From positions 55,423,375 through 55,487,374 of the forward strand of contig CM026426.1 in assembly GCA_014871385.1 (NCBI GenBank): 64,000 nt of DNA, read 5' to 3'. Shown piece after piece: positions 226 through 64,000 of this stretch (within the stretch, counting starts at the first letter, position 1; each line of letters begins with the position of its first letter). Origin of the DNA: Ceratodon purpureus. Taxonomy: Eukaryota > Streptophyta > Bryopsida > Pseudoditrichales > Ditrichaceae. A program made the translations under genes and the position numbers. The notes beneath the pieces are model-generated. The model saw nothing but the letters and a program-made list of their open reading frames with translations. It was not told the origin of the DNA and did not search any database.

Positions 226-234
226 GAGACAAAT
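226..234. repeat. target site duplication, left copy (GAGACAAAT)
   Basis: GAGACAAAT directly abuts the outer end of the left terminal inverted repeat and is repeated exactly at 22041-22049. Nine bases is the usual duplication length for Mutator-like elements. Confidence 0.93.
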
Positions 235-261
235 GCGTCGCGTTAATCACCCCCTACAAAC
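235..261 (+). repeat. left terminal inverted repeat of the large MULE
   Basis: It reads GCGTCGCGTTAATCACCCCC followed by TACAAAC. The reverse complement of 22013-22040 reads GCGTCACGTTAACAACCCCC followed by CTACAAAC. The two differ at about three bases plus one extra C in the C run. Confidence 0.9.
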
Positions 262-920
262 TTCTATTTGAGGGCGCCGCCGCTGCCCGTGCCTTGCTGC
301 CCGATGACGGGCCCCGCTTCTCCAAAAAGGGCCCGGGGTGACAGGCTGGGTCGAGGAGGGTTGACCCGGAGAACCCGCTGGCTGTCAGGCCGGGTCTCTT
401 TTTGAACCCGATATTGAAATGATGGGTCCTGGGTTCAAGGTGGATGATTTTATTTGGCAGGTGCTATGGATGATTTTCTTTTTGCACTACCCAACAATAG
501 AGAATAATCTAAGTGGATCCTTTTAACCCTCTACAGTGCGACTGTACCTGTAGTGTCACTATAGCTGTAGTGTCAAGGGTCTAGTCAGTAGGAATGCTCT
601 GTGCGCCTAGATTTGTGACAACCAGGTCCGTTTTTGGATACTACGTAACACTTTGTACTTCAAATGGTATTGGATATGTAGTGTAAGGAAAAATATATAA
701 TGCCGAGAATTTCGGATCTTGGAATTTTGAATTCTCGCACTACATCTTCCTTAAAAGGGGATATATTGGTGCTGATGGACCACAAGTTCGACCGTCTTCT
801 ATATTTCAGAAATCTTGAGATTTGTTTGAAGTGTAGAGTTTTTTCGTGGGTGACTGTTGTAGTTTGTATAGGAGTGGTTGTTAGTTTTCTTGAGTTATCT
901 AGTTGAAATACAAGGGTGAT
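262..920. other. left subterminal and 5' region of transposase copy 1
   Basis: The first 150 bases are GC-rich with repeated GGGTC and CCCGG words, a composition also seen at the right end (about 21840-22000). The part from about 660 to 900 resembles the stretch upstream of transposase copy 2 (about 3240-3460): both have GAGAATTTTGAA-like sequence near a CACTACA word. It therefore probably holds the conserved promoter and leader of the transposase gene. No separate gene is seen. Confidence 0.5.
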
Positions 921-2629
921 ATGGCAGGTGAGGGGTCTTCAACGATTGAGTTTAGGCGTACTTGTTCTAGCGAGGATGATACACTGTGTGATTACAACTC
1001 TATTCCGGAGAATAGAGTGTGCATGGAATCTGCTCTAGAGCTACACCAATTACAGAGGGTAGAAGGTCTAGCAGGCTTCTCCGATTACAACGAAGTGAAC
1101 GTCCTAGTGAGCGTTTTACCAGATCATATGCTGAACTGTGTTGAGGTCAAGGACGAGATTGAGTGTCCTGTGGTCCTTGCTGTAAGGGAACAGAGTCCTC
1201 ACGAAACCCTCTCATTTGAAGAAGTTACTAGGACAAGAGATTGTCACCTAGTCTCAGTGGTTTTGCCAACCGGAGTTGATCAACACTCCGCATTGATGAT
1301 GGAGAGAGCGTTATCGAATGTTTCAATCAGTAGAGATATGTTTGTCCAAGCGAAGGACCTCTGCAACATAGCAAACAATCGTGCACATGAGTCTTGGATG
1401 AAGCAGAAGGAGACTGCTAGCATTAGGCTCTGGAAGGATAAGAACATTAAAGACGTTTTCTTTTATCAAGAACTTAGTCTGCTGGATATCAATAAGAAAG
1501 AACAAGACGACGCTCCCTTCACACTTGGAGTTCAGACATCCTGGCAGAAGGCTATGCTTGTAAGATTTGGCCATGGAAGTGCTATTTCAGTGGACGCCAC
1601 GTTCGGTACAAGTCACACCCGGGTGAGTGAAGTCTCCCATAACCTGAGCTGTAGTAATTTTGTAGGTGTAGTGCAATAGGTTTAGGGATTTTTATCTTGG
1701 CATGTCCCAACACCTTGATCCAAAACCAACTCATGTGAGTATACTTTGATGCAGTATCCATTGTACACCGTTTTGGTGTTTGACGAATGGCGGAATGTTA
1801 TTCCGGTTGCTTATATCATTGTCTCTAGATCCAGCAAGATTGCTTTGAAATCCGTGCTACAGGCACTAAAGGACAAAGCCATATCTGTCAAGCCTGATTG
1901 GGAGCCATCTTCGATAATTGTGGACAATGCTCGAGCTGGATTGAATGTCATAGGGTAAGCTTATACATTGACTTTATTTTCTTTTGAATTTAGTTTAGGA
2001 TAATTATTAATGATCACGTGTAGTGCACCTTTCTCACAACTACAATACACTACAGGGAGTTGTGGCCGACGTCAAGGATCCTAATCTGTTTCAGGCATGT
2101 GGAGAAGGCATGGGCCAAAAATGCGGCAAATACAATACGTCGGATCGAAGACAGGACCGATATCCTGAAGGGTGTTGAAGACGTTCTGCACGGTGTAGGG
2201 TATGTTGTAGGAACTGATCCAGTGGCATGGGCTAACGAGGAGCTTGACAAGATTAAGAACGCACGGACTTTGGGAGCTAAGTTCATGGAATACATTGATA
2301 AGTACTGGAGAAAGGACATTGGGAAGTGGAGTGCTGCAAATCAGGACTACCCTCATGCTGGCCAAAACATGAATGCTAGTATTCATTCATTCCAAGCTAG
2401 TTTGAAAAGGATTTTGATGTTGAGGAAGCAAAATGTCGCAGGACAGCGGTTGGATTGGTTAGCTGATGATCTCAAGAACAAGGTCACGGGACAGTACTGG
2501 TATGCTAGAGCCCTAAAGGAGTATGGTTTATATCGTAATATCAAGCAAGAGTTTATGAATGCTAATCCTCAAGAAGGGGCTTATTTCGATGGGGATTTAG
2601 TTTCTCTACTGAAAAAATCCGTATTGTAG
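921..2629 (+). pseudogene. MULE transposase, copy 1 (truncated, catalytic Glu replaced)
   Basis: Three exons can be read by alignment with copy 2: 921-1622, 1755-1954 and 2056-2629. All have GT-AG borders at the same codon positions as copy 2, and together they form 492 codons in one frame. The start at 921 (MAGEGSS) matches the start of copy 2 (MATNGSS). First and second catalytic aspartates are present in AISVDATF and IIVDNA. The third acidic position is lost: copy 2 has the Glu of GIESFHANLK, while copy 1 has SIHSFQASLK with a His codon at 2384-2386. The gene ends before the SWIM zinc finger, and about 440 residues of the N-terminal region are missing compared with copy 2. It is unlikely to be a working transposase. 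It could at most act as a competing DNA-binding fragment, which is speculation. Confidence 0.85.
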
Positions 2630-3465
2630 AAAATTTGTGTAGCACATGTAGTACATGGATTTAGTGAACACTACATAACAATGGCAGATGAACACAATGA
2701 TATTGAATTCTGACATGTTGTAATAAAAAAAAGCATTTGAGAACTATATATGGTGTGTACTTCCAGTCCCCTCCTTTCCAAAAAACGGGACAATATGATA
2801 ACAAAGCTCTTGATTTTCTACACATATGACCACCCCTTGCGTTGCTTACAGCAACAGAAGTGAGTGCATGCTGACCCATCTGAACATGTCTTCAATGTCG
2901 GTGAACCCTCCAACACACCAGCTATCAACACCTAGCCTTACTTAAAGACTCATGTACCTTTCGACCTCCACATGAACTCTGTGTTTGCCACAAGTACATC
3001 AAACTCAAAATATACATAGTGTGACAATATAGATGTGATGTTCTACGTACTGTTATAAATGCGAACTAAGGCCATCCTTACCTTTGTGCATTTTAACCCC
3101 ACTTCTTACTACCAAAACCATGTAGTGCAAAGAAATGAACTGCGAACTACAAGATCAAGACCTACGGACTGTTATGATGTACTATACAACAACTTGTCCT
3201 ACACTCCATTGTGGATGAGTAGTGCAATTACACATCCGTCTTGCCTGAAATTATGGATCTGAGAATTTTGAAATTGGCACTACAGCTTCCTTGTAGTGGA
3301 GGATAAATTGTTGGCTTCGGCCACTTATTCTATGGTCCTCCATATTTGTTTAATGTTGAGGTTTGTATGCACGGTAGAGATTTGTTGGTATCGAGTGTTA
3401 TAGTTCCTAGAGAACAGGTTGCTAGTTTCTTTGTTCCTTGATATGGTAGAGAATTTGGAGTGACT
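2630..3465. other. spacer between the two transposase copies
   Basis: No gene is seen. It contains one exact TGTAGTGC (3121-3128) and several variants (GAGTAGTGCA near 3218, GGCACTACAG near 3276). The last 220 bases are related to the leader of copy 1. No internal terminal inverted repeat is recognisable here. Confidence 0.5.
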
Positions 3466-6400
3466 ATGGCAACAAATGGGTCCTCTGTGGTCGAGATTAG
3501 CAGTACCTGCACTGCTGAGGGTGACACACGTTTTGGTTCCCCTTATGAGAGAAACAAGGATTGCTTCATATCTTCTGTGATGCGTCGCCAGGTTCCTGAT
3601 ATCATTGATCTCACAAGTCCTTCCGACTATGAGAGGAAGAGTGCGCTTGGTAGAATTGCATCGAGTACGCATGACGGGAGGTCATTGCTAGCCCACAAGG
3701 TGAACTATGTCGATCTTAAGGATGACAGTTGGTGTGATTTGCTCCTGGGTCGAAGGTCGCCGAGTCCTCAGAAAAGAACGTCTCATGTTGATATAAGCAG
3801 TGAGAGTCATCCACCTCGAGTAGTTCTGCCACCTCGTTTTGGTCATCACTCCCCTGAGGACGTGCCACACGGTTGTAGTATGACAAGCGCCTCCGAGGCA
3901 TCACTACATGGCGCCATGTATCATCTTGAGCAACATCATACAAGTGACTCAGTCCGAACTACAAGCTCTCTTGCTTCCACGGGGTCGGAGGATGGGAGTG
4001 TGGACTTAGCTGCAGATATGTCGTCGTGTTCTACAGAACTGTCCCTAGCAAGTTCAGCTATGTCTACATCTCTGTCCATGAGATCTCAGCGTCCTGCAAA
4101 GCCAAGTCCAAAACCACAATATGTTGATCTTTCCTCTAGCTATTGTACATCTAGTTCATCTGTCTCTGAAAAAGAGAATTTAGAGGATTCCAGAGGTAGT
4201 CAGTACGAAGTTTCCTCGACTTCAAATCCTTCCTTCAATCTGACAGGGCATGTTGTTGACGAGGGTTTAGATTCAAATTGTAAGGACAGCCACAAGCAAT
4301 TTACAAACTTGAGTAGCGATAGGAATGTCAAGTTTGCTGCGGGGAACACTGTCCCTAAGGGAAAGGCTAACAGCGGTAGAGATGATAAACCAACAACCAA
4401 AGTGCCGTTGAAGAAGGAAAATCCGAAGGACAGCAAGCCCATGCGGCATATCTTGTCAGAGGATTGGGAGGAGGATGACCCACCATACCAAGGGCCAGAG
4501 CAAGAGGAAGAGCTAGTTAGAAGGCTTCGAGATATGAAGCAAACTCCTCCACCTGGTCCATTCTGTAGGGAGGATCTCACTTGGGAACCTATTCGAACCC
4601 AAAGCGGAGGCCGTTATTACATACACGAGGTTGCAGTCATCCCTTGGAAGAGACTTTCAGACTTCAGGGAGGGCGAGGGACAGGACAAATTGTATCCTTG
4701 TAGCTTCAACAAGGAGACAGTCTACAAGAATAAGCCTGGGAGCTTGGTACTACCAAGGGCTAACAGTGCTGCCAAAGTTATTAAGTAAGTTCCTTCTCGT
4801 CCTTAATCAGCTCGTTTGTTATTTTCTATTGTAGTGTATCATTGTGTATACTATGTGGCCAATATAGGAATTAGGGTACTAAGTGTAGTGCATTTATTGT
4901 ATAGGTTCAACTCGGGGTAGGCTATGTCCTTTCCATATAGTGCATGTACATTTATCGGGATTGTATTGGATTGAACTTGAGCAGGTTCAGCTGTAATTTT
5001 GGACCTGAAGATAATTCACATATCTACATTAAGGACTTGAAGGGCCTTCTTCAAGCAGAACAGCAAAGGAGGAAGAGAAGGGTCACTATTGCAGTAGAGA
5101 AGAAGCGCAAAGGGAAGAAGGTTATCCCGGATTTCAATGTAATGTGTACTGATAGAAGTACAGGGCAGAAGAAGCCACGCATAGGTTAAAAGGCTGCTGG
5201 CATGTCCAGGAAGCGAGGATGCCAACGGCATTTCCTGGCAAAGCAGAACTACATGGACACTACGTTGTGCCAGTTAGTGTACAAGGTTACTGAGCACGTA
5301 AATGTGCATGGTGAATTGTGCCACGGTGTGACGGTGGCTGGATTCAAGCACTCCATAGGGACTTCATTGTCGGAGAATATGAAGAACAAGCTTGGCAGTA
5401 TGTTAGACATGGGATTGACTTCTACACAGGTTATGATCCAACACAAGGCATGGGTGATGGAGATGGCACTGACAAACGCCCCAGTGAGCAGAGATATGTT
5501 TGTCCAGGCGCACGACGTCGGGAACATAGCAAACAAGCGTGCACAAGAGACTTGGATGAAGCACAAGAAGGAAACCGTTAGTATCAGGCTTTGGAAGGAC
5601 GAGAACATCAAGGAGGTATTCTTCTACCAAGAACACGGTCTATTGGATGTAAACAAGAAGGAACAGGAGGATTCCCCATTCACACTCGGATTTCAGACAG
5701 TTTGGCAGAAGACTATGCTTGTGAAATTTGGCCATCAAAGTGCTATTTCCATTGATGCCACGTTTGATACAAGTCACTCCCGGGTAAGCATTGTTTGACA
5801 TTACTTGAGTACTGAAAAATGTTAGTTGATATGCATGTAGTGCAAGTAGGCTCAGTGAGTACTCAATGTGACTTACACCTAAACCGTGGTCTGATAACAA
5901 GCTTTGTGAGCGTTTTGACTTGATGCAGTATCCATTGTATACCGTTATGGTGTTTGACGAGTGGCGGAATGGAATACCAGTTGCTTATTTCATTATTTCG
6001 AGTTCCACCAAAAACGCATTGAAACCAGTGCTACAGGCGCTGAAGGAAACAGCTTTAGCTGTCAAACCTGATTGGGAGCCCTCGTCAGTGATTGTGGACA
6101 ATGCTCAAGCCGAGTTGAACGTCCTAGAGTAAGTGGAATTAAATTTCTTTTCAATTCAATTAGCATAAGAGGATTTGTACTTATTCAAGCATCAATTGTA
6201 CTTTATGACTCTTACAGCCATGTTGCACTACAGGGAGTTATGGCCGAGGTCCAAGATCCTACTCTGTTTCTGGCATGTTAAGAAGGCATGGGCAGAAAAT
6301 GCGAAGAGCAAGATAAGTCGAATAGAGGATAGGGCGACTATGTTGAAGGATGTTGGTGACGTATTATATGGCAAGGGGTATGTTGTCGGAACAGATCCTG

Positions 6401-7563
6401 TGGCATGGGCTAACAAAGAGCTCGACAAGATAAAGGAGAAACGCCCTTGGGGTGCCAAGTTCATGAAGTACATCGACAAGCACTGGAGAAAGAAGATTGG
6501 GATGTGGTGTGCAGGAAACCGGAATGTCCCTCACGCTGGACAGAACACAAATGCCGGAATTGAGTCTTTTCATGCTAATCTGAAGAGAATTCTCTTGTTG
6601 GAGAAGCAAAGATTTGCTGGGCGCCGGTTGGATTGGTTAGCAGATGATCTGAAGAATAAGGTCACGGGACACTACTGGTATGCGAGAGCCTTGAAAGAGT
6701 TCGGATTTATTCGCAATTTCTCACAGGAGTTTCTCATTGCCAATGCAATCCTCCTTGCATATGGGATCCCCGACTCGTATGTTTACTTGAATCCGGAGGG
6801 GGAGGATATTGCGCTGGTAGTTTGCGTTGCTAATTATCCCAAGGTTTGGACAGTATACGGAACCGACACTGAGTGGGCACAATGTGACTGTTTTATTGGT
6901 CAACAGAACACTATGTGCAAGCATGTTATGAAGGTTTTTCTTATGAAGCATCCTGATATTGATGAAGGACTGATTCTTAGGGAAGCCGGGACAAGGTGTG
7001 AGATAGAGAGGACGATTCCGATGGTGGATGCGTTTGGATCGAAAAGGGACGACTTTGAGGGTGCCGAGGAGGACTTCTCTCGCCTCCCAAAGGATGAAAA
7101 GTACAAGGATGCATGTGTGCCAGATAGAGGCTGCACAGGGAAGCCTGAGAACAACGCAGGACTTGGAACGCAGTCCAATCCGATTGTTCTACGGGATGTA
7201 TCTCATCCACAGGAGTACAACTCTAAAGATATTATGGAGAAATGCTTTGGTACTGAAGAAAATCCCATTGACCTTAACCCCGTTCCCCTGCCACAGAATC
7301 AAAAAACTAAACAAGACAGCCCCGTGGAGTTGATAAAGGATCTCCTTGGCACAGCAGGTAAGCACACTGAGATTGGCCACCACCTGGTTGCTGATTTGAA
7401 GAAGATACGTGGGAAGCACAGGAAGATGATAGCACGTGGAATTGCATGCAACGAGCTGAAGGACACTACCCCGAAATTTCCCTTGCGGGAAGGTGATTGG
7501 TCATTAAAAAGGAAACTAGGTAGACTAGAAGTACCTAGGGCCGGTAAGCGTTGCAAAAGTTAG
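3466..7563 (+). CDS. MULE transposase with SUMO-interacting motifs and SWIM finger, copy 2
   Basis: Four exons, 3466-4784, 4985-5783, 5929-6128 and 6234-7563, keep one reading frame of 1216 codons. There is one in-frame TAA at 5187-5189 with coding sequence on both sides, so this copy needs a repair or readthrough to be functional. The DDE core is complete: Asp in ISIDATF (codon 5754), Asp in VIVDNA (6097) and Glu in GIESFHANLK (6562). A SWIM zinc finger (CDC, seven residues, CKH) follows near 6880-6930. The 440-residue N-terminal exon is Ser-rich and holds several SUMO-interacting-type motifs: VVEISS, DIIDLTSPSD (residues 45-54), YVDLKDD, VDISSES and YVDLSSS. The C-terminal tail has NPIVLRD, NPIDLNP and SPVELIKD. 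A Lys/Arg-rich stretch in exon 2 could bind DNA or act as a nuclear signal. It converges on the Ulp1 genes. Confidence 0.9.
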
Positions 7564-7955
7564 AAGGTAGACCTCAATGACTCTAAGCTAGACTCATGTA
7601 GTGCAATACAATGTAGTGCAAATGATATATTATACTATATAAAACTACATGGACTTCACTATGACCGAGACATTCAGTCGAGTGAAGCACTATTCTGGTC
7701 TTCTATGCTCAGACGGTCACATGTTTAATTTCAATAGATTAGTTATGTAATCCATGTTCTCAAAATAAGGTTGTGACCGTAATGTATTACGTGTAGTGCA
7801 TATATAAGTGTATTTGGCGAAGAAACCATGACATGTAGTGGTGCTTTTTAATTAGGCGATGGGTAACGCTGGCGCACGATCACGATGAATTTGAATTCTG
7901 TCGCAGTCCACATAGGAACTACATATTTAAGCTATATATATATATTTATCCGTAC
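7564..7955. other. convergent intergenic spacer
   Basis: It separates the 3' ends of transposase copy 2 (+) and Ulp1 copy 1 (-). It has three exact TGTAGTGC sites (7597, 7612, 7792) and a variant near 7836, the densest local cluster in the window, plus an AT-rich stretch near 7930. No gene is seen. Confidence 0.6.
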
Positions 7956-10900
7956 TTAGTCATCTATTGGAAAGACGCTTTCTGTAATATGTCCTTTTCT
8001 AGCGGCTCTATGGTTGGACTTTTGACGTACAAGACCTACTTCCTTGACTACGAGATGTTCTCTGCTTGAATCCATTGATGCTCCTCTGTTGACCTCGGCA
8101 GTAATCCGGCACGACATTCCGTCCATAGCACCTGAGACCATCGCCTTCCTAACTGCGTTCTTTAACTTCTGTTTCATGTCCAACACATCCCGAATGTCAA
8201 ATACATCGGACATCTACATCAACATAATGCCATGATGTAAGTATAAGTACACGGTGTGCCACATAAGATACCTTTATGTCACACGGAGATACCCAAGAAT
8301 GCGGTAGCCACATACTCTAACAGTGCTACAATTGAATATAAAATCCAAAGGGGATTGATGCCCAAACCTCTGCTGTCCAGTCGATGTCGTTTTCCTTTCC
8401 CAGAAACGCCATGTATGTGATAACAAAGCACATGACGTAGTATCCACACGACCATCCATCGCTTTGTTTGGGGCAACGAACGTGAGTCCAGGCTTTTGCG
8501 TCGGTACAAGTATTCCATCTGGGCGATCCTTCCGACTCACCTATTGCCATACACCATAACTTGCCTAAACAGTCATGTAGTTTACGACCTCCATGGAAGG
8601 TGTTGGAATCTATGGCACCTGAGTCGAACTTGAAGAATCCAGAGGTCGACAATATTGCTAAGCTCTAGTGAGTACTGTCCACAATGGGAACTATGACTGT
8701 CGTACTCTTCATCCGTCTAAATCCTGATTTCTTACTATAAAACCTTTGTAGTGCGTCAATTGAGTCATCTTCTTTGATGAGCGTACAAAGGCTAGTTGCT
8801 ATTAGAGAATTGCACAATAAAACCTCGTTAGGAAGGTATGATTGAAACCAAATACAAAAGAAATCCATGAGAGGCGTAGTGAGCAGTCCCTCTTGGGAAT
8901 CTAGGGCTTTCATGTCCGGAATAGGGCGTAAAATCGTACTGCCCGAATCAAAAAGGAACTCCAAATGTCCCCTTGTGGTGTCGCCATCCGCCAGTCTTAT
9001 ACGTTCCATCATAAGATGGTAGGCACTGCAATACAGAACGAACAGCGTATCTAAGTGTACCAACAACATGTAGTGTAAAATAATAATATGTAGTGCAGAG
9101 TAATAAATGGATTTTAAAGAAAAAGTGCACAACTACGGGGCTCTACAACCAGAGGAATATTACTTGGATCTTTAAGTGAACATGTATAGAGCAGTGACAT
9201 ATACTACCTACTGTTTACAGTAGGTGAATCCATGGGGGACATGAACAGTGCTACTGCTGTGCTCCGAGGTGGGGTCTCCTCGTGGGAAGTTATTGATGTC
9301 TGCTCCTCACAGGCCTCATCGGATGAAACCAATTTCAATGAACGAATAGGGGAGAGCATTGAACGCACACGACACGGACCTAACCTAAAATCAACATGTG
9401 TTGGAGTCTTCCTAAACCAACTTGATCCCGCCCGCATGATTGGCGGTGATGGGTTCCTTATGTGTAAGGAAAGAAGTTCTCTCTCCCTCAAGGCCCGGTC
9501 CTCATCTAGATGCGTCGTATTAGGTATGGTGGAAAGTGTACTTGCGGCTACCGTTGTAACCATTTCTAAGGACGTAGAATGTTGTTGAACTACAGTCTTT
9601 CCACTTGGGTCCACAACTTCCAGCGGCATGACATTGGCTGTAAGGATGGTTTGAGCGGTAATTGTTTCGTTATGTCCAGGGTAACCCAGCTCTCTGGAAG
9701 TCCGTTGGAGCTCCTTCTCACGAAGCTCCATAAACTTTCGTACAACGCCATTTACGGACTCTCTCAAATCCTCAGGGACTGGTCCTTGATTGTCCAACCC
9801 CAACATTGACCACCCGATGTCCACATCCTCGCGTATACATAACGACCTTGACATCACCTGTATTGCAAGAGCAATCACATTTAGTGGCTATTTACATATA
9901 CGATGGAGAATTACAGCGTTAATGATTGCTATGCAAATGTTGAAATAATGACCTTACTGAATGTTTTTACCTCGTCGCAATGAAGGCGCAAAGTTGTAGG
10001 ATTAGGTGGTCCACGAACCCACCACATGGCCGCAAGCTCGGCAGAATTTCTTCCCGTTCTGTGTAGGTCCACTATTGCTCGGCGTGCAACACGGTTGAGA
10101 AACTGCTCTATCACATGCAGTACGTCGTCCTGGTTCCATCCTTCGAAGCCCATTAGTCCCAGCATGTCACCCCAGCATCGACGAGGTGGAGCGCAAATTC
10201 CTCCAAAAATGCATGGGAAATATGCCCAGCCAATGTCAACAACATCTTGGGCACATGCGAAAAGGCATTTTGATTCTACCTCGTCCTTTGCTATAGCAAG
10301 TATGTTTTTTCTTGTCATGCCTGTAACTGGATGTGAAATCGGCGAGCGTCGTCCAAGTGAGATGCGACCATATAACTTGAGGGCACGAACAATATGGGGA
10401 CACTCTAGTTCCAGCGTCATTGGCTCGAGCTTCACATCCGACTGTAGTGCACTGAGTATACAGTCTAACTCTTCCTGTGTATGAGACCAAGGACGTGGAG
10501 GCATTATTGGAGATCCTTCCTTGCATAAAATTTGGAACATGGGGGATCATCCCCAATCCCTGTCTTCCAAACGAATTTCTTGCTCGCAGTCGTATAATCG
10601 GAGTTGGCCTAGAATATGAGACTTCCGCAAATCCTGTAGTGCAATATCTGCATTGAGTCGTTTGGAGACGTACAAAGCCTTGTCCTTCAGGTACTTCAGA
10701 TAGTGCTCCAGCTTGGTAAGTTCGTTGGTTCTCCCGTCGTGGTTTACCAACTCAATATAGGGATTCCATGGCTTCACAGACATCATGACGAAATTCACTT
10801 GTTCTTTATGTAGTGCGTCACGATCCCCCAAAACCTGCAATACAGAGAGCGTCACAAATCAGGCATTTCCGCCTGCACTACACGAGCATTTTTTGAATAA

Positions 10901-12728
10901 AGCTAAACAAAACCACAGCAAGTGGGGTCCTACACGCGCGTACCTCTGATTCTTTCCATTGTACCCACGGTCCTATAGAAGCATGTATGCGTTCTCCAAG
11001 TTCATCTCGTGATTCTAAAATTCGAAGCTCCGCCATGCATTCTTCATGGTTGTGTAGGAGTCTGCGATCGATGATAGTGCTAGCCGGTGAATCCTGGATC
11101 AGGTGATACAGTCCGGGACTACTCTGTACCTGAGGAGGACGGCCAATATTAGGGTACGTGTTCTCCACTGTTAGTGAGGCTGCATACCGCTGGGCCTTTT
11201 CCAGTACTTCTTCTCGCGTACAGTCAACAGAAAACGTATAAGACGATATGGGCGCATCTTCATGCACTACATTAGAGTGGACGGCTCCCATCTGCGACCC
11301 AACATGTGGGGAGGTATGAAACCGGGATGTATCCTCATGATCTGCTGAAGGCAGATTAGTTGTGTTGGGATTGTCTTGCATTCGTGAGAGCACCTCCTCC
11401 TCAGCTACTACGTCCTTCTTCCTCTTACGTGTGCCTGCTAGCGAATTACTCTTCTTCTTCACAGGACCTTTTGGATGTCCTCTAGAATGTGCAGGAGCAA
11501 CTAGCGACCCTTCGCGATCTCGTTTGGAGTACTTCACCCGGAAAACCGTATCCACTGTATCAAAATATTCTCCGAGGGTCTGCACTACAGTATGGCTATC
11601 CTTCGTGAACCTGTCATGCATTACCGTGGTCCTCTCCCTCTCAACCATCTCCTTTTGTGCGCATTCTTTCTTCTGGTAAAGCTTTGTCACATGTGGCTGT
11701 TGCGTAGTGCAAAGTCCCTCTTTCGGTACCTTCTCGTTGGGCAAGACTACATCCTTACTTGTCCCTCGACTGGTTTCCTTAAGAGACTCCCTAGTCTTTT
11801 TGGACTTTGGCTGCACTACACGAGGTACCTGTACCCTCGGGTTCCAGGGGCAGTGTCCCTCTTCCTCTGGGAACTTCAATCCTCTTTCCTGTAGGATACC
11901 TTTGAGCACGTGCTGTTCACTCTGAGTAAATGTTGGATACATTTTCAACACTCCAGACCCAACTTCTCTCCACTTATCACACTGGTCCTTATAACGATGA
12001 TACGAAAGTGCATTCTTGTCGCTAAAGTCTTCATGACAGTAGTTGCACCAATAGAAATAGCGCTTCTCCTGCCCAGGGTTCTCGTAGTAGTGATAACGGC
12101 AGGTGTAGTGCGCCTCAACTACAAGATCCTTGTATTCCTGCTCAGTATATAGACATGCGCACGGCACTCTACCTTGCTTTAACTCTGCTCTATAGACCCT
12201 CTCACCTCCAACCTTATACCCCTGCAACGTAAAGCAAAGGCCTTCAGAGATTGTAACAACAACTTCTGGTACAATCACAAGTGCAGAATACAACGAAGTG
12301 CCTCATGATATTCTATTGACTATGACGTACCTCTTGCAAACCTTGCACTCCATTTAGCAATAGCGTCTTCCACGTTGCAACTCCAAGCCCGTCTATAATC
12401 CGCTTATCCTCGTTCACAATCAACTTATCATCCTCAGGGAATTGAATTCTAGGACCTGTCACACCCACACCTAGAAAAGATATGGAGCTTGTACTCATGG
12501 CTGGGGGCAAATGTGATCTACTGTCAGCTGTAGCTCCGCTACAGCTCACACCCTGTTTGGGACGTCCCGGCACATGTTTTTTGAAGACAAGGTCTGTATC
12601 TGTAGATGCATCGTCGTCTTCTTCTACACTGTTTCGCAGCCCCAACAACGTTTCAATAGCTTCATCAATACTAGTTTCTCCTACAACGACCTGTTGAGAC
12701 CTTGCCCTCGTAACTCTGCGGCTGTTAT
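7956..12728 (-). pseudogene. zinc-finger and Ulp1 SUMO-peptidase gene, copy 1
   Basis: Readable exons in transcription order are 12331-12728, 10944-12221, 9971-10834, 9229-9857, 8368-9025 and 7956-8213. All borders are GT-AG and the frame is kept. An upstream first exon is probably missing from my reading. Exon 2 carries a cysteine/histidine finger (CRYH, then WCNYCHEDFSDKNALSYHR) and a basic, Lys-rich stretch. Exon 5 is a C48 (Ulp1/SENP) peptidase domain: His, Asp in FFKFDSG, Gln in CPKQSDG and Cys in WSCGYY. Two Trp codons have become stops: TGA at 10547-10549 and TAG at 8665-8667, the latter directly after the catalytic His codon 8668-8670. Both align with Trp in copy 2 and fit G-to-A change. 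The family removes SUMO from proteins in the nucleus. Several TGTAGTGC sites lie inside its exons. Confidence 0.85.
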
Positions 12729-13540
12729 CTATAAAACCCGAAAAAAAGAAAACAACAAACAAAAAACCCCGGAATCAGTAGAGTGTTGTTCTATAGAAAA
12801 ACGAAATTGAAAAAACCTGATAGAGTATGAGGACATCACTACGACTCATAGAATTCTATCACGTGTTTCTGCAACTGTATTCCGGTCTCCACCTCACTAT
12901 CTGTATGAGAATCCTCAGCATTCACCCCTGACCCTAATCCAATAGCAGAAGGACTTCATATGGAAGTTATGGCTACAAATCTCAATACCCAACACTTATA
13001 TCTACACTTATACTCTGTTTCTTCCCAAAACGGACACTGAAAATGCCTCACTAGAACAACCCACCTGCAAAAAAACAAGCTATACTCAAAACGAGATACA
13101 AATGCACACTCATCCCTAACCCCTGCTCTCTGAACTTGTAGGACTCACCTGATTCCATCTCGTCGTCTTACTCTCTACCAAGAACTCTGCCACAACCATC
13201 GCCGTGCCTCTCACCCTTCCCAATCGATGAAACGCCAGAAATTACACCCACGATTGTAGGATCACACCAAGATTCCGCTGGTTCCAACACCTCCCCCAAC
13301 CTGCCATCGTCCCTACAAAATGAAGTCGACCCACATCCTCCTTGCAAAAGTTTCGACTCATGTCTACAATGAGGAGACCACCTCCTTTGTAGCTAAGAAG
13401 GCCTTGCTACAGAACACGTGAGGAGCAGCACACGTGTGCCTGCGGACCATATGAAGTGGACTCCAGCCGAGACAAGCGGTGGCCGCGGCTCTAAAACTGA
13501 ACGATCATCCTAAGCATTACCATGCTAGAAATTATTTATC
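12729..13540. other. 5' region of Ulp1 copy 1, no gene seen
   Basis: The region is of mixed composition. A likely splice acceptor (TTTTATAG) at 12729 feeds the first readable exon, so an untranslated or short first exon may lie here. I found no exact TGTAGTGC in it, in contrast to the neighbouring 8-12 kb. Confidence 0.4.
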
Positions 13541-15420
13541 CAGCATGGTGTAACTTTGAAGTGGATGGCTCTTTAAAAAATTAGAGAACTCAAAAATTAA
13601 ATATTGTATAAACGTATTAAGATACTTACTAATTGAAAGATTATTTAAGTAATTCATGTTTTTAACCATGTTATAATTTTTTTTTCTTAGTACAAATAAG
13701 ACCCGTTGTAAGCAATACATTTCCTAATCCTTCTACCCATTTCTTCGCGTCATTTAAAGTTTCCTCCTTCTTTAGGAAAATAGCGCCTTACCCTAATACT
13801 TTATCTTTACTTATTGTATATTTATACAGCATATGCTAAACCCTCAATCTTGCTGTAGCGTTTGACCATGTAATTTTAATCATATTTCTTTGTCTTCTCC
13901 GATATTAAATTGCATGTCTTACGTTTTTTCATACTTAACTTATTTATGTAATTTCTTTCTTCTTACTCTAATTCGGTTGTCCATATTGTTCTATCTGATT
14001 TTTCTATCATTCCTCCGTTAACTTTTAGAAAGTTCACATATTAAGTATGTTAAATTTATTTTAAGTTTATCCACTTCGATGGTCCAACCTGTTATATTTT
14101 TCTGACGTCCTTTTTATCTTATATTTCATAATATTCCATGGAATTCATATATTATATATTTTAATTATTTAATTTTCTATGTACTTCTTTGTATTTTCCA
14201 TGATATGCATCTCGGAAATAAGTATTCTTATTGCAATTAATTTTATGTCTCAATCTTATACTTTTATATTTTACATTTAGATGTTTTTTGCGATTCTCTA
14301 TTTTTCAAATGTTTTATTTTTTCTTTCATTTTTCCTTTATTCTTTATGTTCTAATATTTTAATTTTACATTCTTGTTATTTGTTTTATCTTTGCAAAGCC
14401 CATTTTGTTCATTTACCCTTTTCCTTTTTTCTTTAATTCAATCATTTAATTTCATATTTCCAATTTTAACCCATGTTTTCTATTTCTCACAACATCCCTA
14501 TTTTTATTTTATTTTTAATTTATGTTTTTTATTTTTACAATTTACCTTTTCTCCTTATTCCTTATGTTCCAATCTTTTAATTTTTTTTTTTTCTTTTTTC
14601 TTTAATCTTTGCGATTCTCACTTTGTACATTTACCCTTTTTCCTTTTTCTTTGAATTTCAATCGTTTAATTTCATATTCAAAATTTGTTTTAAATTTTTT
14701 TCCAATTCTCACTATATCCCTAGTCTTATTGATTTACTTTTTTTTTAAAAATAATTTAAAATTTACTTTATTTCCTTTTTCCTTTCCTTCCAATCTTTTA
14801 ATTTTACCTCTTTATCTATTTTTTTAATGTTTGCAATTCTCACTTTGTGCATTTACCTTTTTCCCTTATTCTGTTCATTTCAATCGATTAATTTATTTTT
14901 TCAATTTTATTTTATTTTTTATTTTTTTCCAATTCTCAATACATCCCTAGTTTTATTTATTTACCTAATCTTTTAATTTTATTTTACAATTTATCTTTTT
15001 TCCTTATTCTTTATGTTCCAATCTTTTAATTTTACTTTTTTCCTTTTTTCTTTAATCTTTGCAATTCTCACTTTGTGCATTTACCATTTTCCCTTAGTTT
15101 ATTTTCATATTTAAAATTTTATTTTTCAATTTCTCTTTGGACGTTATTTTTTTTTTGCCTTTTTCTCTACGGACAAATATTTTAATTTCTCATTTCCCAT
15201 TTTTATTTTTTATTTTATACTAGCTTTAATGCAAGACATTTTAATTAATAGTTTTTTAATGAATCTTTATCCATTTAAATTCTGCTTATACTGTATACCT
15301 TATAATATTTTTCCCACTTCTTTGGACTTATTCATAAATTTCCTTGACACCTTCTTCCCATATATCATCTGTCTTCCAATGTGGTTAGTGTTTAGCTCCG
15401 AAGTCTTTATATAGTTGTTT
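13541..15420. repeat. long T-rich spacer
   Basis: The + strand is very rich in T with C and A, and very poor in G. The open frames here are low-complexity Phe/Leu/Tyr strings and are not credible genes. It lies between the two Ulp1 gene copies and contains a tandem array (14390-15120). Confidence 0.7.
14390..15120 (+). repeat. tandem repeat of about 220 bp in the T-rich spacer
   Basis: A marker close to TTTGCAATTCTCACTTTG followed by TGCATTTACC recurs at 14390, 14608, 14830 and 15058, giving spacings of 218, 222 and 228 bases. The sequence between markers is also similar, for example CATCCCTA and the CAATCTTTTAATTTT words. At least three diverged units are present. Confidence 0.75.
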
Positions 15421-15728
15421 CAAGTTCTCTTAAAATCTTTAATTTATCAAATTATAATGTTCTCTTTATGGCATGATTCCAAAAATGAGTACAATAATCT
15501 TGAAAGATACTATCAACATGAACAATTGAAAAAGAATACAAAAAAGTACTTGTACAAATATAGAGCAAAGCCTTAAAAATGCCGCCAAAACATTATGAAC
15601 CGCAGCGATGGCTAATACACCACATCCGATTCCGAATCTATGCACTACATTTGATCTCGTATGTAGGCACTACATGTCATTTTCCATCTAAGCAGTACAT
15701 CATTTACAGTGTCTGAATCCTACCACAA

Positions 15729-18700
15729 CTACTGATTTGCGTCCGCATCCTCGTAAATGTGCACGGAAACACTACAACAGCGGCGACCTGCCTTTCCACT
15801 CCGCACTGCCGACAATATAGCTTCCTTCAATCCCTTCCGCAGTACAAAAATTTGGCTATGCTCAAAACAGTCCGACATCTGCGAACATTATCAAATTATT
15901 CCTTCACTTGTTATATATCAAATATAAGAAATCAAAATCAGAGTTCCAATACCCTCGAACGAACATAAAACACTTGCAATAAAGTCAGCACAACAGACTA
16001 AATTATATACACCAACGCACTACAGCACTACAATCATACAAGAGGCCCATACAGATGATTACTTACAGCATCCTCCCATTCCCTCTCGTCTGGGGTGCTT
16101 TCCTTCATATACGAACTGAGCATCACGATGTAACATCCCACATAGAACCCACATGTCCAGTCGTCTGGTTGCTGCGGACAATTGGCATGGACCCATGATT
16201 CAATAGAGGACGCCCTCTTCCACTCAGGAGTACCCTGCCCAAATCCGTTGGCCATGCACCACAACTTTGCCATTGCCACGTGTAGACATTGTGGGCCATG
16301 GAAGTTTGGGTTAGTGTGATAACCGGAATCGAACTTGAAGAAGCCCTCATCTGATATCACAGCCAAACTCCAATGTCTGCAATCAAATACTGGAATAAAC
16401 AACATCTTGCCTCGGAAATTAGCAATATAAGAGTTGTCCTCAAAAAATCCTCGTAGTGCATGCATTGAAACAGACCGATTAGTAAGAGCTCTTAGTGACA
16501 CAGCAAACTCTGTTTTGCAGATAAGTGAATTGCTCGGTATATCACCCTCGAACCACTTAGCAAACCAATCCATTAATGGAGGACTCAATCCCATCCTAGC
16601 TACAGTCATAATCTCCATGTCTCCTTCCAGAGTCAGCCTGATCTTCTCCTCGCCAAAAGAGAAGTCCAAGTATCCTCCTCTTACACGGCCTTCTTCTAGA
16701 GAGATTTCATCCATTGAAATATTGAGCGAACTGCAATAATAGACGGTCTTTATTTATATCATGCGCATGTTCAAGTTCAGGAAAATCCTACATTGAGCAT
16801 ATAGCTACGTGACATATTCCGCACTACAGACTTCTCTAGCACTACTTCTGAAAAGGAAACAAAACCGGAAGCAGTACATACTATGCTACTCTTTATAAAG
16901 TAACAAATATAGGATTCGTGAGGCTACACTACCTACTAGGTGTGTGGATCTCCTCAGTAGCTGGTGCATGCACTACATGACCACCACCAGCGGCCTCGCC
17001 GTTGGCAGGTTCTTCATCGCCAATGTGAACTTCATCGCTTGCCAGTGTTGCCCCATGAATCTCTCCGGCAATCAATGCTGCCGCAGCCTCCTCAAAAGAA
17101 CCCTCCCCTCCATCTCCATATTCCAGCAGCCGCATGGAAGTAAATCGTGATCCTGATCCTTGGCCATCCCTCAAGTCAAAGTGACATGGAGTCTTCCGGT
17201 GCCACTGTGTACGACCATTGTCCATTATCACCGGCGCAGGCATCTTGATGTGCTCGCAGAGGACACGTCTCTCCCTCTCTCCTGTTCCTACATCTGGAGA
17301 GATGTCAATTTGACTCCAATCCAACTGATGTTGAAACTGTGATCCAACAATTTGGGACATCTGAGGAATCTCCAGTTCGTCCAAATTTACAGGACTTAGA
17401 GTCGACCTTGCCTCTGAAGCATCTCCTTGAGGATATCCAAGCTTCTTAAATGCTAGGTCCTGTTCCTTCACGTGCAACTCTGTAAGTGCGTCCACGACCT
17501 TCTCAACACTTGTTAATAAACTCTGTGGTGGTGCCTCTTGATTCTCCAATCCAAGCATAGACCAGCCAAGGTCGACGTTTTCACGCAGGATAAACACCCT
17601 TGAGAATACCTGACACATCCAACCGAACATTCACCGTGCATGTGAGCCACACATTCACCCATAACTCACCCGCACTACAGTCGCACTACAGTATCACAAA
17701 TAGCACATTGCAAGCATGATAAGCACATCTGATACTAAATAGAATTACCAAGGGAAGGAGTTCTAACAAAATTTACAAGGCAATTATCGACTGTAGCACA
17801 CCTCGTCGCATTGCAGACGTAGTGCAGCTGAATCCTCGGGTGGCGGATTAAACCACATGGTAGCGACTTCGGTTTTGTGCTCCTCGATTCGGTACAGGTC
17901 CAGAAGGGCACGATGAGCTACTTTTTGTAGAAAGAGTTCCACCTTCTCCAGCACAAGATCTTGACACCACCCTTGGAATCCCATCAAGGCAACCATATCC
18001 GAGCACGATGTACTCCTCGGTTCCCTGGTTTTTCCATACGTACATGGAAAATATGCATACCCGATGTCAACCAGGTCTTGGGCGCATATGGACAACCGCC
18101 GTGACTCCACTCCATCTTCAGCAATTTCCAGGAGCTTCCGCCTGGTCATACCTTTCACTGGGTGTGCCAGTGGCACACTGCGTCCTTCTGTCATTCTGTT
18201 ATAAAGTTTTAAAGCACGCACTACATGTGGACACTCGGATTCAAGACTAGACTTGTTTGTCCCTACCTCCCCCCCTAAACTGAGCATGATCTCCTCTAGT
18301 TCTTCCTGGGTGTGCTTCCAGGGGCGCAGCAGTCTTGTTCCCAGGGGGTCCCTGATTAGTGCCTGATAAAGGGGTGACCACGACCACAACCTCTCCTCGG
18401 TTGCATAAGCTTGCTCCTCCGACTCCAATCTGTCCAAGGCTTTCCGTATATGCATTTCCCGTGTCTCCTGTAGTGCACCATCTACATACTTCTTGTAATC
18501 CCGAAGCTGCTGAGTGAACTGTAAGTACAACTCAAGCTTCTGCAGTTCACTTTCTCTCCCTACTCTGTCTTCCGCCGCCCTGTATGGGTTCCAGCAAGAT
18601 GTAGCACGGTGTACGATGGACTGGATATTCTCCTCATCCGGTAATGTAGTCGTTGGATCCTACACATCATAAAGGAACGGAGTACAAGACAACCAAATTA

Positions 18701-20418
18701 TTCAAGTACTACCATATATTGTGCTGCACTACACCTACTCTAGCACATTGCAACTTCTTTAGATACAAAATAATGTTTCGCTTACCATTTTAGCTAGGCG
18801 CCATTGTATCCAATGACCAAGCGCTGGGATCACTTTCTGCGAAAGCTGCCCATCAGATTCCATTTTCCGTAGGCGCTCCATACATTCCTCATGATTGGTC
18901 AAGATCTCTTTCTCCACGATTGGGACAGGTCCTTCACTTAGTAGGTAGTATAGGCCCGGTGCATGCACTACCTCTGGAGCGTCACGAAGGTCCTTGATAT
19001 CCTGGATACCAAGCAGGGCTGCTTCACGCCAAGCCTCTTGTAACACTTCTTCACGTCTTGTCCCTGAGATTTGCGGCACTGGATGGCAGTCCACGCTTGC
19101 CAGATTGAATCCGCTACGTCGTTCTTCCTCTCGTTCCTCAACCAATTGCTGTGGCGGTAGTGCTCCTTCCTCTCTGTCGTCCACGTCTTCATTATAGAGT
19201 AGATGCCTTGGTTTTACATGGAAGTTGGCATCTTCGTCCTCTTCTCCTTCTCGGTGGGCGACGTTGAACGCACACCCGCCAACTGTCACCCCAGGTCCGA
19301 GTGCTTCCTGCTCCGAGTGCTCGAAATCACAACTGTAGCCCGCTGTTCCTCCTGTATACGACTCGGTCCGGGCATCACCATGTACTGTATCTTGTGCCCT
19401 CTGTAGACGTCGTAGAGCTTTGCTTCTCTGGTCGGCCGCCTCCTGAACACCTCCATCCTTGGTAGTGGAAACATTACCTGGAAGTCTGAGCCTTTTACTC
19501 CTCCGCACTTCATTGGTGGCGGACACAATGGTCATTGTAGTGTCATCCTCCGATTCTGAATCATCGGGACTCCTCATCCTCCTCCTCATCCGGGTCAATG
19601 CTGGTTGAGACACAGGTTCTTGGATTGTCCTCACCACGTGTACCCTCTAGCTCTTCCGAGGGGTCATGTTCCTCTGTCCACCTTCATCTCCTTCACTCCC
19701 TCCAACCTGTACGCTCCTTGAAGAAGACGCCCGTGGCCCCTGTCCTTCGACATCACCCGAATTCTCTGCTGCTCTTCGCTGTGGGGCCTAAGGTCGTGTC
19801 CCCTCGTCATCGGGGAATGTGTATCCATACTTTCCAAGTATCTGCACCACCGTTTGTGTATCACTGACCTTGAACGTGGGGTACATCTTTAGCACCCCCC
19901 CCCTTCCCATCGTTCAATGCCCTCCAAGCTTGACAGAAGTTCCTGTGTCGATGGTAAGAAAGAGCATTCTTATCGGAAAAATCTTCGTGGCAGTATCTAC
20001 ACCAGTACCACCTTCTCTTTTCCTTCCCATGGGCATGGTATTCATGATATCGACACCTGTAGTGCGCTTCTATCACTAGATCTTCATACTCATCCTCCGT
20101 ATACAAGCAAACACAAGGCACATGACCCTGTTTTAGAGTAAACCTGTAGAGGTTTTGTCCCTTTACCTTCGTGCTTGCTACTAGCTCGACTGGCCCATTA
20201 ACAACGATGTCCCACCATTTGCTGAACCCAAGCGCCGCAATGAGTCTGTGATCTTCGTTTACCTTTACATTAAAACCTGTACCGTCATTGCAAATTTCTC
20301 CACCTGTAATTCCAATCCCATATCCCTCAGGTCTTAGAGGTTTGAGTGGCCCAGATGTTTCTCCACCTGTGCTTCCCTGATCGTATACTGCCCCTTCGCT
20401 AACCTTTTCTCTCCTCAT
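15729..20418 (-). pseudogene. zinc-finger and Ulp1 SUMO-peptidase gene, copy 2
   Basis: Exons in transcription order are about 20418-18786, 18659-17802, 17609-16933, 16730-16067 and 15878-15729. Frame and border phases match copy 1. The finger (CRYH, then WCRYCHEDFSDKNALSYHR) is conserved. The C48 peptidase domain is intact: catalytic His (codon 16373-16375, HWSLAV), Asp in FFKFDSG, Gln in CPQQPDD and Cys (codon 16151-16153, WTCGFY). The first exon is broken. A frameshift maps to a run of nine C at 19895-19903, and two TAG stops follow in the restored frame (about 19789 and 19656). The short last exon (150 nt, MSDCFEHS) aligns with the start of the longer last exon of copy 1. A downstream protein starting after the frameshift could still carry a complete peptidase; whether it is expressed is unknown. 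Confidence 0.85.
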
Positions 20419-22012
20419 ATCTGTGCCTCCAAGTCCTTAGCAGTCCTATCCGGCTTCTTAGCGCCCGATTCCCTCCAGCTGTGCAGAATGTACGTAGTGT
20501 ACATGCTCAGTAGTGCCTGTAATAATTTCCAATGAACCTGAAACCCGTAACTGAAATTCAACTTAGAAAAGTTATGAGTGTACCTTGTTGATGTTTGTTG
20601 GCGCACCGATGTCTTTACCCTGCCTTCTAATATGTCCCTTCAACCTAAAACCATAATTTTTCCATTGGCCGTATAAGAGTAACAGAAATTAAACAAGTTC
20701 TGAAAATTAACAAATCAACTTAACTGTAAAGACAGATCGAAGCACATGGTACACGACATACATGACGAAATGGATAATGCGCTTCAAGATAAACATACAA
20801 AACTTCTCCAACAGACAGATGCAAGAAAGACAAAAACCTAAACCATTTGTAAAACCCTAAACTACCATTCCAAACCTAGGTTTACTCAACTGAATACAGC
20901 CGTATCTAGAAACATTACCTTATCAGGGTGACGATCGACCCAGAATGTGATGTTTGTCCAAGTTGTGATGTTCTGGATGGAGATGTCACTCCACTTGTAA
21001 CACTCCAGGTGAGGTTTTAGTTTCCGTTGAGGCGCTCCAACAGTAGCAGTCTGCTTTCTCTCAACCCTTCTCTATTTCATTTCTTCAGTAACTGATGTTC
21101 ACACCGACAAACCCTAAACCGATTTTTAGCCATTCTTCTTGCACAGAACAGGCAACCCTAAACCAAGAAATCCGTGGATACCAAAAGCAATAAAAAAAAA
21201 TAGCGTGTCAGGGCTCCTTTGTGCTCATAACCCTAAACCCCGATCCATTTCGAGCTACCTAGAAAACCAAAAACTGAAATCAAGCTGTCACTTAGCAATT
21301 TCTAGCTTACCTCTCGCATGTCTCCACCTTAGATTCGCAAACCACTCCAGTACTCATGCCCTACCCATTCTTCATTCAGCTGCCATACACCTAAACCAAA
21401 GTCCCTTACAGAATGCTTGCTAATCCTAGAAATATGAAACCCTAAACCTACATGAACAAGGTGAAGGCCATGCGAAAAATGGTAAGAAAATGGCAAGAAG
21501 GGCAGCAAAATGAAATTAGGAATTGGCGAGGAAACGAACTCATGCTGATATGGCGATTGATCACCCCCCATCCATGCTGCTACGTCTCCCTCATTCCATG
21601 GTGCTACGGCGCTTGATCACCCCCCACTCCTAAACTATAACTCTAACCCGACGCCCCACTACCTGAGTGTAGACAAGATCTTCGTTGCCGTCGGTGCACA
21701 ATAGTCGCACCACAGTCGACAACGCAGTACGGAGAGAGATGCCTTCCCCAAACGCAAGACAACTCCAAATGCAAGACATAGGTTTGATGAATGTAGGATG
21801 TAACCCTAAATTGAGATCCGCCGTCATCCCTAAACCTAAACCGGGTTTCAATGGACGGGGACGGGTCTGCCACCCAGGACCCGGTCTGGGCGGTGGGACC
21901 GGGACGGGTGAGCCACCGGCGCGGGCCCGGGCTGACCCCATGACCCGGCTGGGATGGCCCCGCCGCCTTTTCACGGGCTGCCCCTAATTCCCTGATAGGT
22001 CCAATTTTTGGG
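20419..22012. other. right subterminal region and 5' flank of Ulp1 copy 2
   Basis: It contains the probable promoter of the Ulp1 gene. There is a cluster of teloboxes (20851-21448) and a GC-rich outer part (about 21840-22000) with repeated ACCCGG and GGGACC words, like the left end. I see no separate gene; short open frames near 21140-21423 and 21630-22092 look accidental. Confidence 0.5.
20851..21448. promoter_or_regulatory. cluster of teloboxes (AAACCCTA-type)
   Basis: AACCCTAAAC words occur at 20851-20864, 21109-21120, 21154-21164, 21229-21240 and 21437-21448, with weaker ones to about 21835. In plants the telobox is a promoter element bound by telomere-repeat-binding proteins and can take part in Polycomb recruitment. 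It lies upstream of the Ulp1 gene (- strand). The function here is inferred. Confidence 0.6.
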
Positions 22013-22040
22013 GTTTGTAGGGGGGTTGTTAACGTGACGC
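22013..22040 (-). repeat. right terminal inverted repeat of the large MULE
   Basis: It is the reverse-complement partner of 235-261 and ends exactly where the second copy of GAGACAAAT begins. Confidence 0.9.
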
Positions 22041-22049
22041 GAGACAAAT
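22041..22049. repeat. target site duplication, right copy (GAGACAAAT)
   Basis: Exact repeat of 226-234, adjoining the right terminal inverted repeat. Confidence 0.93.
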
Positions 22050-24995: not shown

Positions 24996-25027
24996 CATTA
25001 GGGGAAGATTGGGGTCTCCAGAAGGCC
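24996..25027 (+). repeat. left TIR of family X copy 1
   Basis: Starts CATTAGGGG and includes GGGGTCTCC. It pairs with 35860-35891 on the opposite strand and is related to the TIRs of copy 2. Confidence 0.82.
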
Positions 25028-30333: not shown

Positions 30334-30447
30334 TGTCTACTGCGAATACACCATGGCCGATTCACTCCGACAGCTAATTGAAGAAAACAATGCGAAGAGG
30401 AGAGAGCAGAAAACTAGCAGCTTACCTCGCCGAAGTCCGAAGCAAAA

Positions 30448-34900: not shown

Positions 34901-35005
34901 GCACAGCTCCACTTCCGTAGAACCTCGTCTCATGACCGGGGCATAGCGTGTGTCCAGTGAAACTTGGAGAATGTACTGATTGCTTTGTGCAGCCCTTGCT
35001 GCCAT
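31977..35005 (-). pseudogene. family X gene C, candidate DDE transposase, copy 1
   Basis: Read on - from MAARAAQS at 35005, it aligns with copy 2 (39283-42441) throughout. It shows TNIDLWINGDIYPVD, a coiled-coil segment, AVALARILSRHEG, IGPDKILAACDQAGVS, KLDEAEIVNGKKFERVSITL, VHICTLHALVRLAEKIVH and VWSCQGMEKSHHQAKAA. It is broken by several frameshifts (near 34500, 33950 and 33400) and multiple stops. Some stops are C-to-T type, such as the TGG-to-stop change in SGNDKA. It keeps the Q codon at the position where copy 2 has a stop (VVQRSMVIFYG). The identification as transposase rests on the pattern described for copy 2. Confidence 0.65.
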
Positions 35006-44717: not shown

Positions 44718-44768
<51 letters not shown>

Positions 44769-63975: not shown

Positions 63976-64000
63976 GCCCGGAGTGATAGTTCCAAGTGCA

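What the first reader, a model, noticed from the sequence alone, without database searches (positions are those of the whole stretch)
1667..20065. TGTAGTGC: at least 31 copies inside one MULE, almost none outside
The 8-mer is enriched more than 40-fold over chance and follows the element borders. It occurs in exons, introns and spacers on both strands. In Arabidopsis VANDAL MULEs, short motifs scattered through the element are the targets of the element-encoded anti-silencing protein VANC. This looks like an independent case with a different word, and the long zinc-finger/Ulp1 protein is a candidate reader. If so, it is an undescribed self-recognition system.
Basis: partly seen in the sequence, partly recalled or inferred. 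Interest (0 to 1): 0.88.

Follow-up and report, generated by a model that had tools for sequence, protein, structure and literature searches.

The report
Moss jumping gene's self-recognition word
A giant jumping gene in a moss, and its relatives, carry one short DNA word scattered from end to end, in genes and gaps alike; the word is kept and slowly re-spelled as the family diverges, as if a protein of the element recognises its own DNA by it.

Summary
The element is a 21.8-kb MULE (235-22040) with inverted ends and a perfect 9-bp duplication. It holds 33 TGTAGTGC, 48 times the genome density; flanks beyond the next base are random. All 30 loci fetched with the transposase search (window included) carry it (2-9 per 4 kb; reversed word 0-1). 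Words are conserved beyond their surroundings between subfamilies (coding 9 of 13 against 16%; noncoding 6 of 15 against 3%), and in a derivative without long ORFs. It is one spelling of a bipartite word: TGT-AG-TGCR in close subfamilies, TGT-nn-TGCA further out, YGT-CC-TGGA in a subfamily at ~45% transposase identity, which has no TGTAGTGC in 28 kb. There the zinc-finger helix of the element's zinc-finger/Ulp1 protein has changed too. Best reading: sites for an element-encoded reader, probably that protein, in a VANC-like anti-silencing system. Binding, demethylation and SUMO-protease action are inferred, not shown. Not filed as VANC: no DUF1985 found, and words are not noncoding tandem arrays. 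Species inferred: Ceratodon purpureus.

The parts
226..234 (.). left target-site duplication GAGACAAAT
   Evidence: identical to 22041-22049; only two copies in the window; the only 9-bp TSD plus TIR pair in a window-wide scan
235..264 (+). left terminal inverted repeat, GCGTCGCGTTAATCACCCCCTACAAAC... (inner limit approximate)
903..2629 (+). T1: truncated transposase-like module (ORFs 903-1679, 2060-2629); the relatives' C-terminal part does not align here
   Evidence: 73.9% nucleotide identity of 1277-2566 to 5434-6744; tblastn
2772..2970 (-). remnant of a third Ulp1 C-terminal region
   Evidence: 67.7% identity to 8393-8593
3460..7563 (+). T2: MULE-type transposase gene (ORFs 3460-4788, 5202-5798, 6175-7563; small exon about 5926-6131; exon limits approximate)
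   Evidence: protein relatives P0001-P0008 of the last exon, which is an open 462-aa ORF
8388..12762 (-). U1: zinc-finger/Ulp1 protein gene, decayed in this copy (in-frame stops at 10547-10549 and 8665-8667); limits approximate
   Evidence: relatives P0009-P0018, sequence read by eye, alignment with U2
14329..15096 (.). AT-rich tandem array, period 228, 3.5 copies; contains no word
   Evidence: word positions
16034..20418 (-). U2: second zinc-finger/Ulp1 gene with Peptidase_C48 domain (16034-16714); decayed (frame change in a G run near 19900, stop at 19788-19790)
   Evidence: Pfam PF02902 23.2 bits, cut-off 20.7; sequence read by eye
737..20065 (.). the 33 TGTAGTGC words; + at 1667, 2019, 3121, 4884, 5836, 7597, 7612, 7792, 8747, 9089, 10443, 10635, 10809, 12104, 18469, 20058; - at 737, 3277, 6225, 10875, 11264, 11582, 11813, 15642, 15667, 16017, 16025, 16821, 16970, 17672, 17683, 18218, 18726
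22011..22040 (-). right terminal inverted repeat (inner limit approximate)
22041..22049 (.). right target-site duplication GAGACAAAT

Best explanation
The word is the recognition site of a DNA-binding protein encoded by the MULE family itself. The family spreads many copies over its whole length, in exons, introns and spacers, so that the protein marks every family copy, including derivatives without genes. Shown by sequence: enrichment, family specificity, conservation above surroundings, turnover of positions, and a graded difference of a bipartite word (TGT-nn-TGCA to YGT-CC-TGGA) along the family. Rough odds: functional element-read sites 0.8; U as reader 0.6; anti-silencing 0.5; through deSUMOylation 0.3.
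For: Enrichment 47.6-fold over the genome; 30 of 30 loci from the transposase search carry it, the window's own included; close word pairs 120 genome-wide against 32 for the reversed pattern, and 54 of the 100 listed lie within 20 kb of 93 typed transposase hits, a territory of 0.85% of the genome. Conservation: A/B pairwise, coding 9 of 13 words identical against 15.9% of other 8-mers (P 2.6e-5), noncoding 6 of 15 against 3.2% (P 4.5e-6); A/B consensus over 4 kb, noncoding 5 of 7 against 0.4%. Derivative L042 without ORFs of 150 aa: 18 words against 0.41 expected; 10 of 13 aligned words intact against 12.8%. Subfamily D: TGTAGTGC 0 in 28 kb, YGTCCTGG 46 against a null mean of 7.5, largest 15. 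Backbone TGTnnTGCA: A 31, B 28, C1 24, C2 31 against nulls of 4-6, largest 9-12. Finger helix FSDKNALSYH (with S/T and L/I variants) in A, B, C1, C2 but MVDKSELAWH in D locus L032. C48 domain passes Pfam's cut-off in two subfamilies.
Confidence: 0.55

Rival explanations
1. The transposase is the reader: internal sites recruit transposase or let it activate family copies, as MURA and TnpA do at their own sites.
For: The transposase diverges in step with the word. Passages of PMC10398659 name TnpA of Spm and MURA of MuDR as element proteins linked with loss of methylation.
Against: The words do not mark the ends: none in the first 502 bp or the last 1.97 kb of the element, although three TGTAGTGT lie at 549-677; the TIRs lack the word. 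Recalled transposase sites are terminal or subterminal.
Confidence: 0.15
2. A host protein reads the word, either a host activator exploited by the element or a host silencer that recognises the family.
For: No reader has been identified experimentally; telobox-like sites near the right end show that host-type sites are present too.
Against: The spelling differs between related subfamilies in one genome, which fits a reader that changes with the element. Sites serving a host silencer should be lost, but they are conserved.
Confidence: 0.12
3. An RNA-level signal (splicing, stability, export) in the element's transcripts.
For: Excess of the sense orientation in T (8 of 11) and U2 (10 of 12), counted from the positions.
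Against: Both orientations occur relative to the genes: within ORFs 6 sense and 9 antisense words, and U1 has more antisense than sense words (positions); words also lie in spacers and in a derivative without long ORFs.
Confidence: 0.05
4. A mutational or duplication artefact: a micro-repeat spread by slippage, or composition.
For: A few adjacent pairs exist (16017/16025, 17672/17683, 7597/7612). Some one-mismatch neighbours are raised in A, TGTAGTGT most (9 against 1.1; others 3-5).
Against: Flanks are random; the word is conserved above background; subfamily D has a different word.
Confidence: 0.03

Closest known systems
VANDAL21/VANC21 and VANDAL6/VANC6 of Arabidopsis thaliana (PMC5735166, Results section read in full)
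   Same: MULE superfamily; short word (YAGTATTAY; AGTTGTCC/AC) highly enriched in the family and rare elsewhere; word differs between related families; element-encoded extra protein besides the transposase.
   Different: There the words lie mainly in noncoding DNA, often in tandem repeats and in one orientation. Here they lie in exons as well as introns and spacers, on both strands, mostly as single sites with unrelated flanks; in the tandem-repeat scan only one 2-copy array (9068-9106) includes the word. No DUF1985 was found here; a long TIR-bearing element in what I infer to be a moss.
KIU (Kaonashi): Ulp1-bearing VANC-type genes of non-TIR MULEs (passages of the review PMC13317346; original papers not seen)
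   Same: Ulp1 protease domain in a protein of elements that the review says recognise specific motifs in related elements; the review calls the domain's function unknown.
   Different: The review places that Ulp1 capture at the monocot/eudicot separation. The element here is, by inference, in a moss, has TIRs, and its protein has a C2HC finger; no sequence comparison with KIU was made.
Spm TnpA and MuDR MURA of maize (passages of PMC10398659; details of sites recalled)
   Same: Element-encoded proteins linked with loss of DNA methylation on their own family.
   Different: Sites terminal or subterminal (recalled, apart from the TIRs named in the passage), not along the whole element including exons.

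Membership tests
Mutator-like element (MULE) | about 9-bp target-site duplication | tested here: met
   GAGACAAAT at 226-234 and 22041-22049
Mutator-like element (MULE) | terminal inverted repeats | tested here: met
   17 of the first 20 bases match
Mutator-like element (MULE) | MULE transposase domain / SWIM finger by Pfam | tested here: inconclusive
   no Pfam hit for four T ORFs at 1e-3; relatives P0007 and P0002 show SWIM below cut-off, 18.5 and 15.3 bits against 19.6
VANC anti-silencing family | DUF1985 domain | tested here: not met
   ORF-by-ORF hmmscan of eight U1/U2 ORFs and two of a C1 relative up to E 10: none. ORFs were tested apart, so a split weak domain could be missed
VANC anti-silencing family | family-specific short word, different in related families | tested here: met
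VANC anti-silencing family | words in noncoding tandem repeats, same orientation | tested here: not met
   13 coding and 15 noncoding words in 4675-22040, both strands; tandem repeat scan
VANC anti-silencing family | binding to the word and loss of DNA methylation | not testable with these tools
   needs DAP-seq/EMSA and bisulfite sequencing
KIU-type Ulp1 MULE protein | Ulp1 (Peptidase_C48) domain in an extra MULE-encoded protein | tested here: met
   23.2 and 25.7 bits, cut-off 20.7
KIU-type Ulp1 MULE protein | descent from the KIU genes of flowering plants | not tested
   no KIU sequence was compared

The most novel reading that the evidence does not exclude
Mosses harbour an independent, whole-body self-recognition code. 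A MULE lineage encodes a zinc-finger SUMO protease that reads a bipartite word (TGT-nn-TGCA in most subfamilies, YGT-CC-TGGA in another) seeded through its entire DNA, coding sequence included. The protein strips SUMO-dependent silencing from all family copies, and word and finger co-evolve by small steps within one genome. Unrelated giant elements in the same genome (the CATTAGG-ended pair beside it, with GCTGCCAGC) may use codes of their own.
Probability: 0.3. Interest if true: 0.92.

Novelty: new variant of a known kind. Interest (0 to 1): 0.8.

Why it matters
In the papers seen here, word-based sequence-specific anti-silencing by transposons is described for Arabidopsis VANDALs. A comparable word system in a moss MULE with TIRs, an Ulp1 domain and a zinc finger would show that such systems are old or arose repeatedly, and would offer a function for the Ulp1 domain that MULEs carry. 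The family is a natural series of spellings in one genome with near-identical, intermediate and re-spelled subfamilies, so the co-evolution of a reader and its word can be tested directly. It would also be a possible tool for locus-specific epigenome editing.

Tried and rejected
Words as transposase end sites: disfavoured by distribution. Words as duplicated repeats: rejected on flanks. RNA signal: disfavoured by orientation. Protein-driven coincidence (for example the conserved AHY codons at 12104 and 20058): it can explain single sites, not the introns, spacers or the derivative without long ORFs. Words within ORFs fall in three strand/phase classes (6, 5 and 4 of 15), not all six possible, so some codon preference remains; at least two of those 15 (1667, 9089) probably lie in introns that the ORFs read through.

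Not done because the genome server stayed busy: own-genome search with the U protein and with P0007 (64, 70, 75), genome baselines of CCAGGACG (89, 92), YGTCCTGG (129, 132, 135, 138) and GCTGCCAGC (130). The D word is therefore judged against composition-matched simulations only. The Ulp1 part of D elements was not looked for. The transposase search scored 92 of 791 candidates, so family size is a lower bound. In one search, loci L013, L018, L019 and L021-L030 were left out. C1 and C2 figures rest on 12.9 kb each, C2 partly (L039 plus L027).
Full report
What is there. The window lies at 55.42-55.49 Mb of a 110.5-Mb contig (length) in a 362.5-Mb genome of 151 contigs. A review passage gives Ceratodon purpureus sex chromosomes as over 100 Mb each and about 30% of a 360-Mb genome (PMC8000587, passages); contig C6 is 30.5% of this assembly. 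I infer that species and a sex chromosome; it is not proven. The element spans 235-22040: inverted ends GCGTCRCGTTAA...CCCCCTACAAAC at both borders and the 9-bp duplication GAGACAAAT directly outside them. A scan of the whole window for TSD plus TIR returns this pair as the only 9-bp case.

Anatomy. Transposase-like module T1 (903-2629) is a truncated, 74%-identical relative of T2 (3460-7563), and behind it lies a remnant of an Ulp1 C-terminus (2772-2970). Two genes on the minus strand, U1 (8388-12762) and U2 (16034-20418), encode a protein with a finger C-x2-C-x3-F-x5-L-x2-H-x5-C and a C-terminal Ulp1 domain (Peptidase_C48, 23.2 bits in U2, cut-off 20.7; 25.7 bits in a C1 relative). In this copy both U genes are broken: in-frame stops in U1 at 10547-10549 and 8665-8667, a frame change in a G run near 19900 and a stop at 19788-19790 in U2, read by eye from the sequences. 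The three stops stand where the aligned copy or relatives have Trp. T1-like pieces sit about 4-6 kb from T2 in several other A copies, so the T1-T2 order is a feature of the subfamily.

The word. Simulations give at most 5 (60 Markov-3 runs). The genome holds 11,527, a 47.6-fold lower density; the reversed word holds 8,887. The next base is A or G in 29 of 32; no other flanking position is conserved. Words sit within ORFs in sense (6) and antisense (9) orientation, in introns and in spacers.

Other copies. The T2 exon protein found 119 matches in the genome (92 of 791 candidates scored), with subfamilies I call A (90-98% identity), B (71-80%), C (64-73%) and D (43-47%). All 30 loci fetched with it, L001 being the window's own, contain the word: 11 A loci 6-8 each, 8 B loci 5-9, 9 C loci 2-5, two A-like fragments 3 and 4; the reversed word occurs 0-1 times. 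A second A copy has 24 words in 17.8 kb, a B element 32 in 19.4 kb. Some of the other 46 carry pair strings also seen in B copies or in the derivative L042, but I did not count them formally, and a few look like local tandem repeats (for example C6:59069520).

Conservation. Aligning the window element with a B element from 4675 on, 9 of 13 coding words and 6 of 15 noncoding words are identical, against 15.9% and 3.2% of other 8-mers (binomial P 2.6e-5 and 4.5e-6). With A and B consensus rows over 4 kb the noncoding figure is 5 of 7 against 0.4%. The exon map is approximate and the P values treat words as independent. L042 (C6:55731000-55740999) aligns to both ends of the family, at 75-79% identity there, has no ORF of 150 aa or more, and carries 18 words against 0.41 expected; 10 of 13 aligned A words are intact against 12.8%. 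Duplicated modules make some of those 13 non-independent (12104 and 20058, for example, match the same stretch). Results on the other side: within A the words are only slightly better kept than other noncoding 8-mers (0.87 against 0.79), and C1 and C2 keep 1 of 2 and 0 of 3 aligned word places, so there is turnover of positions.

Re-spelling. Four D loci (28 kb) have no TGTAGTGC. Among 7-mers that are not A/T runs, CCAGGAC leads in three of them, and CAGGACG in the fourth, L033; 80 CAGGAC lie in the 28 kb, 71 of them followed by A or G. YGTCCTGG: 46 against a simulated mean of 7.5, largest 15. In C1, TGTACTGC (8) and TGTGCTGC (7) are as common as TGTAGTGC (7). Looking for TGTnnTGCA: A 31 (AG 20), B 28 (AG 17), C1 24 (AC 6, AG 4, GC 4, CC 3), C2 31 (CT 8, AG 6, CC 5), against nulls of 4-6, largest 9-12; D 4, but GTnnTGGA 50 against 20.2 expected, 26 of them CC; a control of 16.6 kb from the window gives 2 and 13 against 2.4 and 10.5. 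So the outer bases (YGT...TG) are shared and the middle and 3' end shift. The bipartite form was found after looking at the data and needs an independent test; the D word has no genome baseline because the server was busy.

Comparison. VANC21 and VANC6 recognise YAGTATTAY and AGTTGTCC/AC in noncoding, often tandemly repeated DNA of their own families (PMC5735166, Results read; introduction of PMC10398659 read). A 2026 review describes Ulp1-bearing VANC genes (KIU) and says that the role of the Ulp1 domain is unknown (PMC13317346, passages). The system here works like these in its logic but does not pass as a VANC family member: no DUF1985 was found and the words are not confined to noncoding tandem arrays. 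I rate it a new variant of a known kind.

A second, unrelated case nearby. Two CATTAGG-ended elements (24996-35891 and 38484-50292, opposite orientation) carry GCTGCCAGC 6 and 9 times against about 0.4 expected each, and none occurs elsewhere in the window; only 1 of the 9 sits unchanged at the aligned place of the other element. No target-site duplication was found for them. If real, family-specific scattered words may be a habit of large DNA transposons in this genome.

Noticed in passing
24996-35891 and 38484-50292: Two diverged (about 73%) elements with CATTAGG...GGGGTCT ends in opposite orientation; each is enriched in the word GCTGCCAGC (6 and 9 copies against 0.4 expected; 0 elsewhere in the window). 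Possibly a second, independent scattered-word system.
   Followed up: partly
20837-21842: Right end of the MULE is rich in telobox-like AACCCTAAACC; CCTAAACC occurs 8 times between 20837 and 21835, all on the + strand.
   Followed up: no
10547-10549, 8665-8667, 19788-19790: The stops in the U genes stand where the aligned copy or relatives have Trp codons, the pattern expected from G-to-A (deamination-type) decay; observed only, nothing repaired.
   Followed up: no
58427-61506: hAT-type transposase pair of ORFs (DUF659, 125 bits; Dimer_Tnp_hAT, 40 bits); no comparable scattered word in 58000-64000.
   Followed up: no
L042 (C6:55731000-55740999): About 9.3-kb derivative of the MULE family without ORFs of 150 aa or more, 18 words in the 10-kb locus; the same close-pair strings recur at several other loci on C4, C5 and C6, suggesting amplification.
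   Followed up: partly
58123-58236: Local cluster of ACGGCCCC, 5 copies within about 110 bp; a local repeat, not dispersed.
   Followed up: no
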